Origin: Ruminococcus sp.
Lineage (GTDB): Bacteria; Bacillota; Clostridia; Oscillospirales; Ruminococcaceae
Length of the DNA stretch: 64,000 bases
Assembly (NCBI GenBank): GCA_017462565.1
Contig: JAFTQW010000028.1
Location: 48,564 to 112,563, forward strand
Direction of reading: 5' to 3'
The notes below the pieces were generated by a model. That model had not been told where the DNA came from, did no database searches, and saw only the letters and a list, made by a program, of their open reading frames with translations. The translations under genes and the position numbers were made by a program. Within the stretch, counting starts at the first letter, position 1; each line of letters opens with the position of its first letter. Below are positions 2,184 through 29,164 of this stretch, piece after piece.

Positions 2184-3701
2184 ATGTCAAAGAAACCAGT
2201 AGCGCTTATAATTATGGACGGCTTTGGCTACAATCCTGACAGCTACGGCAATGCAATTACAGCCGCAAAGAAGCCAAATATTGACAAATATATGAAAGGT
2301 CCGCATACACTTATAGGTGCAAGCGGTCTTGATGTAGGACTTCCCGACGGACAGATGGGAAACTCAGAAGTTGGTCACACAAACATTGGCGCAGGAAGAA
2401 TCGTTTACCAGATGCTCGTTAAGATTTCAAAGGATATAAAGGACGGAACTTTCTTCAACAATAAAGCTATTCTTTCCGCAATGGACAACTGCAAGAAGAA
2501 TGATTCTGCACTTCATCTTATGGGACTTCTTTCTCCCGGCGGAGTTCACAGTCACATGGAGCACCTTTTCGGTCTTGTTGAAATGGCAAAGAAAAACGGT
2601 CTTGACAAGGTCTATATCCACGCATTTCTTGACGGACGTGATGTTCCTCCGTCTTCAGCCGCAGAATATATGGAGCAGACTGTTGAAGAGCTGAACAAGA
2701 TCGGTCTTGGCAAAATAGCTACTATTTCAGGACGTTTCTACGCTATGGACAGAGACAATGCCTGGGACAGAGTTGAGAAGGCTTATTCTGCAATCGTATA
2801 CGGCGAGGGAGTTAATGAATCCGAGCCTGTTCAGGCTATCAAAAATTCCTACGCTAACGAAATAACGGACGAATTCATGCTTCCTACCGTAATTGAGGGC
2901 GGAGCTTCTGTCAAAAAGGGCGACAGCGTAATTTTCTTCAACTTCCGTCCCGACCGTGCAAGACAGCTCACAAGAGCTTTTGTTGATCCCGATTTCAGCG
3001 GTTTTGAGAGAAAGAACGGATTCTTTAAAACTAACTTTGTCTGCATGGCACAGTACGATGCTTCAATGCCAAATGTAAGTGTTGCATATCCTCCGGAGCA
3101 GCTTACAATGACTTTGGGCGAATATCTCAGCAAGTCCGGAAAAACTCAGCTTCGTATTGCAGAAACACAGAAGTATGCTCATGTTACATTCTTCTTCAAC
3201 GGCGGTGAGGAAAAGCAGTTTGAGGGAGAGGACAGAATCCTTATCAAATCGCCTGATGTTGCAACATTCGATATGAAACCGGAAATGAGCGCTTACGAAG
3301 TGTGCGATGCCGTTGTAGACGCTATCAATGCCGATAAATACGACGTTATTATACTTAATTACGCAAACTGCGACATGGTTGGTCATACCGGAGTTTTCGA
3401 TGCAGCAGTAGCAGCAGTTGAAGCTGTTGACGAATGCGTTGGAAGAATGGTTGAAGCTATTCTCGCAAAGGGCGGAGCAGCTCTTATTACAGCAGATCAC
3501 GGTAATGCTGATAAAATGTATGAACCGGATGGAAGTCCGTTTACAGCTCATACAACAAATCCCGTACCGCTTATCGCTGTAGGAATTGACGGTGAGCTTC
3601 GTGAGGGCGGAGTTCTTGCAGATCTCGCACCAACAATGCTTGAAATTCTCGAAATGCCTCAGCCAGCAGAAATGACTGGTAAATCATTGATCGTTAAATA
3701 A
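2184..3701 (+). CDS. gpmI: 2,3-bisphosphoglycerate-independent phosphoglycerate mutase
   Basis: Interconverts 3- and 2-phosphoglycerate using a phosphoserine intermediate and two metal ions (alkaline phosphatase superfamily). At 505 residues it is of normal length. IIMDGFGY holds the first metal ligand. Ser61 in MGNSEVGHT is the phosphorylated serine. HAFLDGRDVPP, SGRFYAMDRD and the C-terminal TADHGNAD metal site are clear. The start ATG has AGGAG 9 nt upstream. It is the last gene of the pgk-tpiA-gpmI cluster and is followed directly by a strong intrinsic terminator. Confidence 0.97.
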   Translation: MSKKPVALIIMDGFGYNPDSYGNAITAAKKPNIDKYMKGPHTLIGASGLDVGLPDGQMGNSEVGHTNIGAGRIVYQMLVKISKDIKDGTFFNNKAILSAMDNCKKNDSALHLMGLLSPGGVHSHMEHLFGLVEMAKKNGLDKVYIHAFLDGRDVPPSSAAEYMEQTVEELNKIGLGKIATISGRFYAMDRDNAWDRVEKAYSAIVYGEGVNESEPVQAIKNSYANEITDEFMLPTVIEGGASVKKGDSVIFFNFRPDRARQLTRAFVDPDFSGFERKNGFFKTNFVCMAQYDASMPNVSVAYPPEQLTMTLGEYLSKSGKTQLRIAETQKYAHVTFFFNGGEEKQFEGEDRILIKSPDVATFDMKPEMSAYEVCDAVVDAINADKYDVIILNYANCDMVGHTGVFDAAVAAVEAVDECVGRMVEAILAKGGAALITADHGNADKMYEPDGSPFTAHTTNPVPLIAVGIDGELREGGVLADLAPTMLEILEMPQPAEMTGKSLIVK

Positions 3702-25381: not shown

Positions 25382-25577
25382 AAAAAATCCGCCTTGCCGT
25401 CATATAGCGAAATAAAACCAAGCGTTTACGCAAGGTGGGTAGTCGCCCGAATGCTTCACGCTCCCTTCTTCCACAATGGGGAGGTCTGCAATCCACAGCC
25501 GGAGCCGAATTCCCTTTAAAAAAGTGTTGGATTATAAAAACTACAATTACCCGAACAAGGCAGATTATTTAATTGAC
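25382..25577 (-). ncRNA. ssrS: 6S RNA
   Basis: A transcript of about 195 nt on the minus strand. Its ends pair over 9 bp (TCTGCCTTG with CAAGGCGGA) and it finishes in TTTTTTT. The 3' half reads GGCGACTACCCACCTTG, then a small hairpin, then CTTGGTT; this parallels the GCGAC...CACCTTG...AAGGGTT arm of E. coli 6S RNA. GGCTCCGG and GGGAGCG provide the terminal arm. It has a TTGATT-17-TATAAT promoter. Length, symmetry and the 3' bubble strand fit 6S RNA, which binds the sigma-A RNA polymerase holoenzyme. Identification is by memory, not a covariance search. Confidence 0.72.
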
Positions 25578-25583
25578 ATATAT

Positions 25584-25612
25584 ATTATAACACAAATAAA
25601 TCAGAAAATCAA
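25584..25612 (-). promoter_or_regulatory. promoter of 6S RNA
   Basis: Minus-strand TTGATT (25612-25607) and TATAAT (25589-25584) with a 17-nt spacer; the start is expected near 25577. Confidence 0.75.
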
Positions 25613-25649
25613 TACCTAATTTATGTAAAGTTGTAAATTTTTAAAGAAT

Positions 25650-25958
25650 TTATTCTTCATCGAGAGAATCTTCTTCAAAAGCTTCCTGCATTCTCTGGAG
25701 AAAGAACTCAGAAACTTCTTCAAATTCATCGTCATCGTCAATAGAAGCAAGAATCTCTTCGCCGTTATCTTCGATTGCCTTTAATATTACAAGGTCACAA
25801 TCGGCATTTAGAAAATCGTCATCCTCTATAGCCGGCACCATAGCATAATACTGTTCACCGTTAAGCTCAGCAGCGTCAATAAGTTCAAAGTTCTTTTTAT
25901 TTCCATCTTCATCGACAAGTTCAAAAAGTTCGGGAGTGTATTCGTTCATTTCAGACAT
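25650..25958 (-). CDS. DUF1292 family protein
   Basis: 102 residues, strongly acidic (C-terminus FEEDSLDEE). FELVDEDGNKKNFELID, EYYAMVP-like EQYYAMVPA and DEFEEVSEFF match the small DUF1292 (YrzB-type) family found across Firmicutes. No enzymatic role is known. An AAGGAGC site precedes the ATG. It lies upstream of 6S RNA on the same strand; the 6S promoter makes that RNA independent. Confidence 0.88.
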   Translation of the reverse strand: MSEMNEYTPELFELVDEDGNKKNFELIDAAELNGEQYYAMVPAIEDDDFLNADCDLVILKAIEDNGEEILASIDDDDEFEEVSEFFLQRMQEAFEEDSLDEE

Positions 25959-26173: not shown

Positions 26174-26202
26174 TTGACATTTAATAAATAATGTGGTATT
26201 AT
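26174..26202 (+). promoter_or_regulatory. strong promoter of the 525-nt RNA
   Basis: TTGACA (26174-26179), 17-nt spacer, TATTAT (26197-26202); the start is expected near 26209. Confidence 0.8.
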
Positions 26203-26208
26203 ATAATC

Positions 26209-26735
26209 AATGAAAGGGAAGTAAGAGTCCCAAAGCTGAATTTACTTGGTCTGAGTTTAAAAGCTCGATGTAAATTTATTTAATGCGGAAAGGCGGTTGA
26301 GTCCAATGGAAGAAATATCAGAACAGCAGCGTGAAGCCGGCGGGCTTGCTGAGTAAAACGTATAAAAATTGGGAATATAGGCTTCGGCTTGTTCCATTGA
26401 TTGAAATTACAAATTTAATGTTCGTTTACTGAGCTGACGTATTGCTGATTGGAAACGGCTTCATGTCTAAAGTCTATTTGGATACAGGATTATCTGAAAT
26501 TTCGACAGTAAGTCTTTAGATATATTGAATTAAAAATAATGTAAAGGTTGAGTCCAATGAGAAATTAAGATATTTTTATCAGTTATTTTAGGATAGATTT
26601 TGGGTCGGACAGGCGCAGAATGCAATCTGATTTTACTGAAAAGGTGATATCCGATGAAGAAAGATATGTTCTGATTATTTAAACAATTGAATATTATTAA
26701 TATATCGGCTGGGTTATTAATCCGGCCGTTTTGAT
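26209..26735 (+). ncRNA. large structured non-coding RNA, class unidentified
   Basis: A region of about 525 nt with a near-consensus promoter at its 5' end, a terminator at its 3' end and no reading frame with a ribosome site. The 14-nt sequence GGTTGAGTCCAATG occurs twice, at 26295-26308 and 26546-26559, both followed by AGAAAT. Clear helices include GGGA/TCCC near the 5' end, GAATTTAC with GTAAATTT (about 26241 and 26271), CAATGGAA (26304-26311) with TTCCATTG (26392-26399), and GAAGCC (26333-26338) with GGCTTC (26380-26385). It lies upstream of the GH11 gene, but the terminator separates them. It does not resemble tmRNA, RNase P or SRP RNA. A ROOL-like large RNA is one possibility. Confidence 0.6.
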
Positions 26736-27013: not shown

Positions 27014-29164
27014 ATGAGACAAGGCGCAATCAAAAGGTCTGTCAGCGGTTTTATTACAATGCTGATGACAGCTGTTTGCTTCTTTACCATGCCGGCATCG
27101 CAGCTAAATTCCGCCGCTGCCGATCAGCAGCAGATCGGTAATAAAGACGGATATGACTACGAGCTTTGGAACCAGTGGGGACAAGGCAGTGCAGAAATGC
27201 AGGTTGGAAGCGACGGAGCATTCTCATGCAGCTGGAGCGGAATCGAAAATTGTCTTTTCCGTACCGGAAAAAAGCTTGAGAAAACAAAGAAATACGGCGA
27301 ATATAACGGTATTTACATTGATTATGATGTCGAATATGAGCCGAAAGGAAACTCCTATATGTGTGTCTACGGATGGACAGAAAACCCTACCGTTGAATAC
27401 TACATCGTGGAAGCATGGGGTTCATGGAGACCGCCGGGATCTACTAATTCTCTCGGTACAGTTGAAGCGAACGGAAATAAATACGACATTTATAAAACCG
27501 TAAGAGAAAATCAGCCGTCTATTCACGGAACTGAAACATTTGAACAGTATTGGAGCGTTCGTCAGGATAATCCCGCACAGAACAATGTCAAAAAAGAAAT
27601 CACAGGCAGAATCAGTGTATCCAAGCACTTTGAAGCATGGGAAAAAGCTGGTCTTGATATGAGCGGAACAATGTATGAAGTTGCTTTGAATATCGAGGGT
27701 TATCAGTCAAACGGAAGTGCTAATGTTATTAAGAACGGTCTTGTTTTTGGTGATGGTGACGGCGACGGAGGTACAGTTAAACCTCCAGTGATCGTAGAAC
27801 CGGACGAAAACGGATATTTCTTTCACTCTGATTTTGAAGATGATACCGACAGCTGGGCAGCAAGAGGCAATGCTTCTGTTAAAACAGACAGTTCCGAAAC
27901 TTATGACGGAAACAAATCTCTCTGCGTAACCGGAAGAACAGATTCATGGAATGGCGCAGCACGTTCATTAAACAGTTCTGCTTTTGTTCCGGGAAATTCT
28001 TATAGTTTCAGCGTAATAGCAATGCAGAATGAAACTGCATCAGAGAATTTCAAGCTTACTCTTCAGTATACAAAAGACGGCGAGGAAAACTATGATACAA
28101 TTGCTACAGCAACCGGAGCAAAAGGCGAGTGGGTTCAGCTTGCAAACACAAGCTATACTATTCCGTCCGGTGCATCAAATCTACTTATTTATGTGGAAAC
28201 GGACGACAGCACAACGAATTTCTATATGGATGAGGCTATCGGAGCTAAAAACGGAACAATAATCAGTGCTGACAAAAAGTATAAAACTGGTGACGTAAAC
28301 TGCGATGGAAAAATTGACTCTGCTGATATTCAGGAGCTTCAGAATTTTATTCTTGGTATGAAAGCAAGCGTTGTCACTGAAACATCTGATATGAACAGTG
28401 ATGGTATTATCGATTCGTTTGATCTTGCTCTCCTAAGAAAAGCAGTGAATGCAAAATCTACAGAACCTATAACTCCTCTGGATGAGCCTTCGGGAAATAA
28501 TGGCATTGATATTTCGTGGATAGATCCATCCAAGCCAATGGTTGCGATCTCATTTGATGACGGAGCGGTCGGAACATCTTCAAATTCGTCGTCTATGAGA
28601 ATTCTCAATGCTCTTTCCGATTCAGGCTTCCACTCAACATTTTTCTATGTTGGAAACTGGATAAACGCTGGCAATCAGGATGAAGTAAAAAAAGCATATG
28701 ATATGGGAATGGAAATTGCTAATCATACAAATTCTCATCCGTATCTTACAAACCTTTCAGAGAGTGAGATACGAAGCGAATATGATACCTGCGCACAGAA
28801 GCTTAAATCTATAACAGGCGCAGAGCCGTCTAAACTTCTGAGACTTCCATATCTTGCTTCAAACAGCACAGTTCAGAGCGCACTTTATGATGCTCCGCTT
28901 ATAACTTGTTCAATCGACACACAGGATTGGAACAGCGCATCGAGCAATCAGATAATAGATACCGTAAAAAATGCCATGAACAGCGGTTCACTTGATAATG
29001 CAATCGTACTTTGTCACGAAACGTATGATAGCACGGCAGAGGCAATGGAATATCTTTGTCCTTATCTTAAATCGCAGGGATGGCAGATAGTGACCATTTC
29101 AGAACTTTTTGCAGTAAATGGAAAAGAACTGAATGGCGGTCAGATTTACACAAAATGTAATTAA
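27014..29164 (+). CDS. bifunctional xylanase/acetylxylan esterase: GH11-CBM22-dockerin-CE4
   Basis: 716 residues, secreted (signal 1-36). GH11 (about 40-245) has the nucleophile Glu in VEYYIVEAWG and the acid/base Glu in NIEGYQSNGSA. CBM22 (260-415) binds xylan. The type I dockerin (422-485) has GDVNCDGKIDSADI and a second loop DMNSDGIIDSFDL. CE4 polysaccharide deacetylase (497-700) has AISFDDG, the zinc-site ANHTNSHP and LRLPY. The order matches bifunctional xylanase-esterases described from R. flavefaciens. It would cleave the xylan backbone and remove acetyl groups while docked to the cellulosome. It is monocistronic, flanked by an RNA gene and a palindromic repeat. Confidence 0.96.
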   Translation: MRQGAIKRSVSGFITMLMTAVCFFTMPASQLNSAAADQQQIGNKDGYDYELWNQWGQGSAEMQVGSDGAFSCSWSGIENCLFRTGKKLEKTKKYGEYNGIYIDYDVEYEPKGNSYMCVYGWTENPTVEYYIVEAWGSWRPPGSTNSLGTVEANGNKYDIYKTVRENQPSIHGTETFEQYWSVRQDNPAQNNVKKEITGRISVSKHFEAWEKAGLDMSGTMYEVALNIEGYQSNGSANVIKNGLVFGDGDGDGGTVKPPVIVEPDENGYFFHSDFEDDTDSWAARGNASVKTDSSETYDGNKSLCVTGRTDSWNGAARSLNSSAFVPGNSYSFSVIAMQNETASENFKLTLQYTKDGEENYDTIATATGAKGEWVQLANTSYTIPSGASNLLIYVETDDSTTNFYMDEAIGAKNGTIISADKKYKTGDVNCDGKIDSADIQELQNFILGMKASVVTETSDMNSDGIIDSFDLALLRKAVNAKSTEPITPLDEPSGNNGIDISWIDPSKPMVAISFDDGAVGTSSNSSSMRILNALSDSGFHSTFFYVGNWINAGNQDEVKKAYDMGMEIANHTNSHPYLTNLSESEIRSEYDTCAQKLKSITGAEPSKLLRLPYLASNSTVQSALYDAPLITCSIDTQDWNSASSNQIIDTVKNAMNSGSLDNAIVLCHETYDSTAEAMEYLCPYLKSQGWQIVTISELFAVNGKELNGGQIYTKCN

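What the first reader, a model, noticed from the sequence alone, without database searches (positions are those of the whole stretch)
26209..26735. Free-standing structured RNA of about 525 nt
Seen: a TTGACA-17-TATTAT promoter, a GC-rich terminator, no translated frame, several long-range helices (for example CAATGGAA with TTCCATTG), and a 14-nt motif GGTTGAGTCCAATG repeated 251 nt apart. Length and autonomy match the range of rare large bacterial RNAs such as ROOL or GOLLD, but I cannot assign it. It could be a known class in an unfamiliar guise or a new one.
Basis: partly seen in the sequence, partly recalled or inferred. Interest (0 to 1): 0.8.

Follow-up and report, generated by a model that had tools for sequence, protein, structure and literature searches.

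The report
Ribosome-start array RNA of Ruminococcus
A conserved, free-standing bacterial RNA carries several strong ribosome-binding sites, each followed by a very short reading frame (some only two or three codons long), and may be built to catch and hold ribosomes rather than to make proteins.

Summary
The transcript looks real: own promoter and terminator, present in 98 of 125 genomes of the genus (65 of 68 good assemblies), with a folded core supported by compensatory changes. It matches no Rfam family at the locus.

'No translated frame' does not hold. The repeated 14-mer GGTTGAGTCCAATG is a translation-start module: a Shine-Dalgarno sequence extended so that it can pair with most of the free 3' tail of 16S rRNA, then AUG/GUG, then a very short ORF. 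The window has three (MEEISEQQREAGGLAE*, MRN*, MKKDMF*); one relative has seven.

Upstream of the same neighbour gene (DUF1292) in 29 other genera of the family, the module occurs 51 times on the expected strand and 6 times on the other (shuffles 7.0). A stop within three codons follows in frame in 22 of 50, against 4 and 8 of 50 in the other frames.

Best reading: an RNA that recruits ribosomes and holds them in very short initiation-termination cycles, as a reservoir/decoy or as a shield for the RNA. Anatomy well supported; function inferred; no expression data were available.

The parts
26174..26202 (+). Promoter TTGACA-17-TATTAT with TG before the -10
   Evidence: form found in 42 of 44 aligned homologues
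26207..26735 (+). Transcript as inferred from promoter and terminator
   Evidence: the transcription start was not mapped
26216..26231 (+). 5' hairpin GGGA...TCCC
   Evidence: predicted fold; seen by eye in homologues, not counted
26240..26275 (+). Hairpin ATTTAC...GTAAAT
   Evidence: 98% of cells paired, 6 double changes in 44 sequences; pair 26254-26265 E = 0.05 in the tree-aware test
26287..26305 (+). Module 1: extended Shine-Dalgarno sequence GGAAAGGCGGTTGAGTCCA
   Evidence: repeat; predicted duplex with the 16S tail -18.3 kcal/mol
26306..26356 (+). ORF 1, 16 codons and stop: MEEISEQQREAGGLAE*
   Evidence: the first-module ORF has 16 codons in 34 of 44 homologues and 15-19 in all 44
26319..26522 (+). 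Folded core covered by covariance model R1
26333..26462 (+). Arm closed by GAAGCCG (26333-26339) with CGGCTTC (26456-26462)
   Evidence: helix 1: 99.3% of cells paired, 5 of 7 pairs with double changes
26371..26395 (+). Hairpin GGGAATATAGGC...GCTTGTTCC inside that arm
   Evidence: helix 5: 97.1% of cells paired, 5 of 9 pairs with double changes; pair 26382-26387 E = 0.025
26542..26556 (+). Module 2: TAAAGGTTGAGTCCA
   Evidence: repeat; predicted duplex -9.3 kcal/mol
26557..26568 (+). ORF 2, three codons and stop: MRN*
   Evidence: MR* or MRx* in most homologues listed there
26639..26653 (+). Module 3: AAAAGGTGATATCCG
   Evidence: predicted duplex -13.0 kcal/mol
26654..26674 (+). ORF 3, six codons and stop: MKKDMF*
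26706..26735 (+). Terminator: stem 26706-26728 and T-rich tail
25650..25958 (-). Neighbour: DUF1292 gene, divergent; syntenic anchor, not part of the RNA
   Evidence: PF06949, E 7e-16
25382..25569 (-). Neighbour: 6S RNA gene; context only
   Evidence: RF00013, 75.7 bits

Best explanation
The locus encodes a free-standing transcript whose working parts are ribosome-capture modules. Each is a Shine-Dalgarno sequence extended, with about one bulged base, along most of the free 3' tail of 16S rRNA, followed by a start codon and, after a very short ORF, a stop. Ribosomes load at the modules, initiate, terminate almost at once and are likely to restart on the same site, because the long duplex holds them. 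The RNA thus parks ribosomes; in Ruminococcus a folded core lies between modules 1 and 2. I infer that its job is to hold a pool of ribosomes (a decoy or buffer for translation). Shown by comparison: modules, reading frame, early stops, fold, conservation. Inferred: ribosome binding in the cell, restarting, the reservoir role.
For: Genus-wide conservation: 98 of 125 genomes, 65 of 68 good assemblies. Module counts on the expected strand against the other strand and 20 shuffles: 51 against 6 and 7.0 in 29 other genera; 133 against 1 and 3.8 in 44 Ruminococcus RNAs. A stop within three codons after the start, in frame: 22 of 50 against 4 and 8 of 50 (p = 2e-5); 51 of 129 against 8 and 11. ORFs over 25 codons: 3 of 50 against 32 of 100; 0 of 129 against 37 of 258. 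TAA, TAG and TGA are all used. First ORF acidic at codons 2-8: 43 of 140 in frame against 3 and 5. Extended pairing: the tail beyond the anti-SD adds 5.1 kcal/mol in modules against 2.0 at gene starts. Modules recur where the core is not alignable. Published minigene work reports restarting on a strong SD without dissociation (PMC8708949, passages).
Against: No expression or ribosome-binding data. The anti-SD part alone is weaker in modules than at the chosen gene starts (-7.8 against -9.6). Modules are not more open than the rest in single-sequence folds (0.38 against 0.40, 15 of 44 sequences). A first version of the frame test, counted from the start codon itself, was not significant against the +1 frame (p = 0.37; p = 0.007 against +2); I then counted from the next codon, because ATGA gives a trivial +1 stop. 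Over 80 6S flanks of the order the strict pattern gave 24 sites and a control with non-stop codons 28, so there is no order-wide signal. Many modules lead ORFs of 6-25 codons, not minimal ones. Isolate ATCC 19208 (L008) has a frameshift in ORF 1.
Confidence: 0.4

Rival explanations
1. Shield, not sink: parked ribosomes protect a regulatory RNA from nucleases, as STAB-SD does for cry3A mRNA, and the folded core does the real work.
For: A 30S subunit on a non-coding SD is reported to block RNase J1 (PMC4113751, passages), and minigenes to stabilise transcripts (PMC8708949, passages). The core is strongly conserved in the genus. In L190, L193 and five viral-collection RNAs a module lies right at the inferred 5' end.
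Against: The core is not alignable in other genera that keep the modules. In the window module 1 lies about 80 nt from the inferred 5' end.
Confidence: 0.25
2. Micro-peptide messenger: the products matter, an acidic-start peptide of about 13-23 residues, a basic one of about 10, and dipeptides.
For: Acidic bias at codons 2-8 of the first ORF; similar basic ORFs in several genera.
Against: Within the genus pN/pS is about 0.75, but RNA constraint lowers pS and some frames were mis-picked, so inconclusive. ORFs of two or three codons with varied second codons carry little information. Frameshift in L008.
Confidence: 0.12
3. Translation sensor: ribosome or tRNA availability at the modules changes the fold or decay of the RNA and so its activity.
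For: Modules flank the folded core; leader-peptide attenuation is a known principle (PMC8708949 introduction).
Against: No downstream gene before the terminator; second codons vary between modules and genera, so no single tRNA is read.
Confidence: 0.1
4. The motif is not a translation start but a binding site for another RNA or a protein.
For: Copies without a start codon occur near the 3' end of many homologues.
Against: Frame-specific early stops, hardly any long ORFs and use of all three stop codons.
Confidence: 0.08

Closest known systems
Two-codon minigenes (axe-txe mg2, B. subtilis ycbK, EHEC LEE1; PMC8708949, abstract, introduction and passages)
   Same: SD, start, one codon, stop; reported restarting, stabilisation and tRNA trapping
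   Different: Those sit singly or in pairs in front of a gene and act in cis; here several sit in a free-standing RNA with an extended SD
STAB-SD of cry3A mRNA (PMC4113751, passages)
   Same: SD-like sequence pairing with the 16S 3' end, proposed to hold a 30S subunit
   Different: Single site, no start codon used, in front of a protein gene
ROOL and GOLLD (PMC12286853, passages)
   Same: Length range, elaborate fold, rumen/gut hosts; ribosomes are reported to bind GOLLD in pull-downs
   Different: No sequence or structure match; chromosomal and vertically conserved here, while those are reported from phages and prophages
6S RNA
   Same: Analogy only: an RNA that would occupy a central machine by mimicking its template (6S function recalled)
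   Different: 6S binds RNA polymerase; a separate 6S gene lies nearby

Membership tests
ROOL / GOLLD | Match to the Rfam covariance models | tested here: not met
   no match at gathering over the window or up to E = 10 at the locus
ROOL / GOLLD | Encoded in phages or prophages, often near tRNA islands | tested here: inconclusive
   neighbours are DUF1292, 6S and a dockerin-bearing GH11 enzyme; conserved in 98 of 125 genomes of the genus; no tRNA or prophage scan of the window was run
ROOL / GOLLD | Homo-oligomeric cage | not testable with these tools
   needs cryo-EM
tmRNA / RNase P RNA | Match to the family model at this locus | tested here: not met
   no match here; own copies elsewhere in the genome
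6S RNA | Match to RF00013 at this locus | tested here: not met
   RF00013 matches only 25382-25569 minus
Two-codon minigene | SD, start codon, one further codon, stop | tested here: met
   MK*, MR*, MA* in L095, MY*, MR* in L198 and others; in the window itself the shortest is MRN*, three codons
Two-codon minigene | Located in the leader of a gene that it regulates in cis | tested here: not met
   terminator at 26706-26728; no ORF of 50 aa or more between the promoter and the terminator on this strand
STAB-SD | SD-like sequence near the RNA 5' end that can pair with the 16S 3' end | tested here: inconclusive
   pairing predicted, but module 1 is about 80 nt from the inferred 5' end in the window; it is at the inferred 5' end in L190, L193 and five viral-collection RNAs
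STAB-SD | Stabilises the RNA against RNase J1 | not testable with these tools
   needs half-life measurements

The most novel reading that the evidence does not exclude
A new class of bacterial RNA, 'minimal-ORF array RNA': a dedicated transcript that holds several ribosomes at once in start-stop cycles and so buffers free ribosomes, a counterpart for translation of what 6S RNA does to RNA polymerase.
Probability: 0.3. Interest if true: 0.95.

Novelty: categorically new. Interest (0 to 1): 0.85.

Why it matters
If true, bacteria would have an RNA that acts on the ribosome pool directly. It would give a natural system for studying restart, termination and tRNA drop-off on two-codon ORFs, and would show that some 'non-coding' RNAs are built of translation starts. 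It is near-universal in a fibre-degrading genus (ecology recalled), and its modules extend to other genera of the family. No Rfam 15 family matched the RNA at the loci scanned (6S and tRNA were the only families found), and the ten paper searches run here did not show it (open-licence PMC papers only).

Tried and rejected
ROOL, GOLLD, tmRNA, RNase P, 6S: rejected at this locus.

Coupling to 6S RNA: at first every confirmed array that I had scanned lay beside 6S, which suggested a joint function. Among DUF1292 loci of the family, 10 of 14 with arrays and 12 of 15 without have 6S, so this is no evidence.

Order-wide arrays: 3 of 80 6S flanks (80 genera) had two or more strict modules on one strand, and one of the two in L254 is probably chance. 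In that scan the totals were 24 sites, 28 for a control with non-stop codons in place of stops, and 5 for reversed sequence. The stricter pattern was found in 14 of 394 order genomes and 4 of 391 class genomes (the four all in family f1); the reversed-pattern control hit 2 genomes in each scan by my count of the tables.

Model R1 outside the genus: 0 of 392 order genomes (fast filters). A weak match (22.3 bits, E 0.003) lies in the syntenic place of one other genus, held twice as L094 and L174.

Purifying selection on the peptides: inconclusive; the automatic choice took the wrong frame for several rows. In one search the register of the GAAGCCG helix was off by one, so its 65% is not used; one search gives that helix 99.3%. 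Accessibility of modules: no difference.

Frame test: the first version was not significant against the +1 frame; the counting was then changed, as told under evidence against.

I first took the single pattern hits L188-L193 and L203 as chance. Two of them (L190, L193) have a promoter-like sequence directly upstream and look real.

Rows dropped: 78 nhmmer rows in 75 loci; 72 loci at E <= 1e-12 gave 58 distinct sequences, then 44 after removal of near-identical ones. Five of the 44 (L015, L020, L024, L059, L089: long inserts or degenerate) were left out of A2 and R1. In one search L176 was read in the wrong place because its contig is cut: it counts 1 module there and 4. One of 51 and four of 133 modules lay too near a sequence end for the frame test. 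In one search two of the 20 first ORFs (L158, L195) were chosen by hand. DUF1292 loci were held only for the best 30 matches.

Full report
The observation. Over the whole window Rfam finds only 6S RNA, at 25382-25569 on the other strand. At the locus the best matches up to E = 10 have E = 0.23 or worse and lie below their gathering scores. The genome has tmRNA and RNase P RNA elsewhere. The sequence matches once in its genome.

Conservation. A DNA search matched 26 of 60 genomes (own included): 26 of the 36 of this genus and none of 24 from other families. The neighbour across the promoter is a DUF1292 gene. With it as an anchor, 69 loci were fetched from named genomes, mostly Ruminococcus flavefaciens and uncultured Ruminococcus; 47 of 69 have a match to the RNA, 46 of them directly upstream and divergent. 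Covariance model R1 of the core found the RNA in 98 of 125 genomes of the genus and 65 of 68 good assemblies, twice in one genome and once in each of the other 97, but in 0 of 392 other genomes of the order.

Fold. On 39 sequences the consensus has 39 pairs, 20 with changes on both sides. 96.2% of cells pair, against 32-43% with the partner slid by 1-3 columns; there are 111 double-change cells against a shuffled mean of 23.9, reached by 0 of 500 shuffles (that control does not correct for relatedness). In my own tree-aware test over all column pairs of 44 sequences, three pairs had E = 0.025, the floor of the test, and one E = 0.05; the next best were not complementary. Best supported: the hairpin 26240-26275, the arm closed by 26333-26339 with 26456-26462, the helix around 26355-26427 and the hairpin 26371-26395.

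The repeat is a translation start. In the homologues the 14-mer lies at a fixed place before a start codon: an SD-like purine run, GAGTCC or a close variant, one base, then AUG or GUG. The first-module ORF has 16 codons in 34 of 44 sequences and 15-19 in all 44. Then come MR* or MRx*, then ME*, MRN*, MENFYIA* and similar. Many relatives have a further basic ORF of about 10 codons and a start-less copy near the 3' end. The window's RNA and its 93% relative (G031) have a shorter form with three modules.

Outside the genus. Upstream of DUF1292 in other Clostridia the core is not alignable, but a similar promoter leads into rows of modules. L095 reads MK*, MK*, MR*, MA*, MKRKRFFLLKEF*, MYK*, MDQQS*, then a terminator-like stem; L096 includes MN*, MACRRKQLKISSVKI*, MGR*, MY*. 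A pattern for SD + GAGTCC + start + codon + stop hit 14 of 394 order genomes, against 2 for the reversed control, with two sites within about 120 nt in four genomes. Of 16 hit loci looked at, nine (L194-L198, L199-L202) hold several modules; the other seven show one. In 29 DUF1292 loci of 29 other genera of the family the looser module was found 51 times on the expected strand and 6 times on the other; 20 shuffles gave 7.0 on average and 11 at most. In 13 of 29, two or more modules lead short ORFs (my count).

Frame test. Counting from the codon after the start, a stop came within three codons in 22 of 50 modules in frame, against 4 and 8 of 50 in the shifted frames (p = 2e-5); ORFs longer than 25 codons were 3 of 50 against 32 of 100 (p = 2e-4). 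In 44 Ruminococcus RNAs the figures are 51 of 129 against 8 and 11, and 0 of 129 against 37 of 258; these sequences are related, so those p-values overstate. A first version that counted from the start codon itself was not significant against the +1 frame, p = 0.37; it is biased because ATGA contains a +1 stop. Over 20 loci, codons 2-8 of the first ORF hold 43 acidic residues of 140 in frame against 3 and 5 in the shifted frames. These results are hard to explain unless the frames are read.

Pairing with the ribosome. The 16S 3' end in four genomes of the order (two of the family) is GGCTGGATCACCTCCTTTCT; the window's own assembly shows no 16S. The module resembles the complement of most of that tail with about one bulged base. 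Predicted duplexes have a median of -12.7 kcal/mol for 133 modules, -11.0 for 46 long-ORF starts of the window (each chosen for its best SD) and -7.7 for shuffled modules. The part beyond the anti-SD contributes 5.1 against 2.0 kcal/mol; the anti-SD part alone is weaker in modules, -7.8 against -9.6.

Mechanism. Work on two-codon minigenes (PMC8708949: abstract, introduction and passages seen) reports that with a strong SD the ribosome restarts without leaving, that such transcripts are stabilised, and that tRNA can be trapped as peptidyl-tRNA. A review of cry genes (PMC4113751, passages) reports that a 30S subunit on the non-coding STAB-SD blocks RNase J1. From these and the anatomy I infer an RNA that parks ribosomes. 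The modules, not the core, are what different genera share, which favours parking over shielding of one fold; both remain open.

Against it. There are no expression data. Modules are not more open than the rest in single-sequence folds of 15 of the 44 RNAs. One isolate has a frameshift in ORF 1 (L008). Peptide-level constraint in the genus is weak or masked. 6S lies beside array-free loci as often as beside arrays. Across 80 6S flanks of the order, strict modules are no commoner than a non-stop control, so the class is not order-wide.

Distance from known kinds. The pieces (minigene, extended SD, large folded RNA) are each known. A free-standing transcript made of a row of them I did not find in Rfam 15 at the loci scanned or in the ten paper searches listed under 'why it matters'. 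I therefore rate the anatomy as categorically new, with the function unproven.

Noticed in passing
L294, L295, L296 (about 2300-2760, minus strand), L298, L299: contigs of the viral collection: 5 of 7 contigs hit by the module pattern carry a similar free-standing RNA of roughly 330 nt that starts, just after a promoter, with AAAGGTGAGTCCRATGTAYTAR (MY*). In L296 it lies between contractile-tail genes (Baseplate_J, Phage_sheath) and an MreB gene. No Rfam match, no match to model R1. A second RNA type with the same module.
   Followed up: partly
L190 and L193 (family f14 genomes): A promoter-like sequence followed at once by AGAAAG..AGGTGAGTCC + start + codon + stop: perhaps single-module relatives of the viral-collection RNAs.
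   Followed up: no
window 25382-25958: DUF1292 and 6S RNA are neighbours in most loci scanned: 22 of 29 other-genus loci and 16 of 18 named loci. An old linkage, with or without the array RNA.
   Followed up: yes
22 of 69 named DUF1292 loci, e.g. L035, L058, L081: No match to the RNA in these loci; in several, sequence that looks protein-coding follows DUF1292 instead. In L052 the RNA lies over 2 kb away on the other side of DUF1292.
   Followed up: partly
homologues near the 3' end, e.g. alignment, GGGTGAGTCCAAAGGGTAATTTAGC: A module copy without a start codon, followed by a hairpin of the type AAGTGA-tgaaag-TCGCTT that varies in a compensatory way by eye. Unexplained; not counted.
   Followed up: no
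window 27014-29164 plus strand: Secreted-type enzyme with GH11 xylanase, CBM_4_9, dockerin and polysaccharide deacetylase domains, a cellulosome component by its dockerin.
   Followed up: no
G000:C66:160323-160526: A second DUF1292 gene in the same genome.
   Followed up: no
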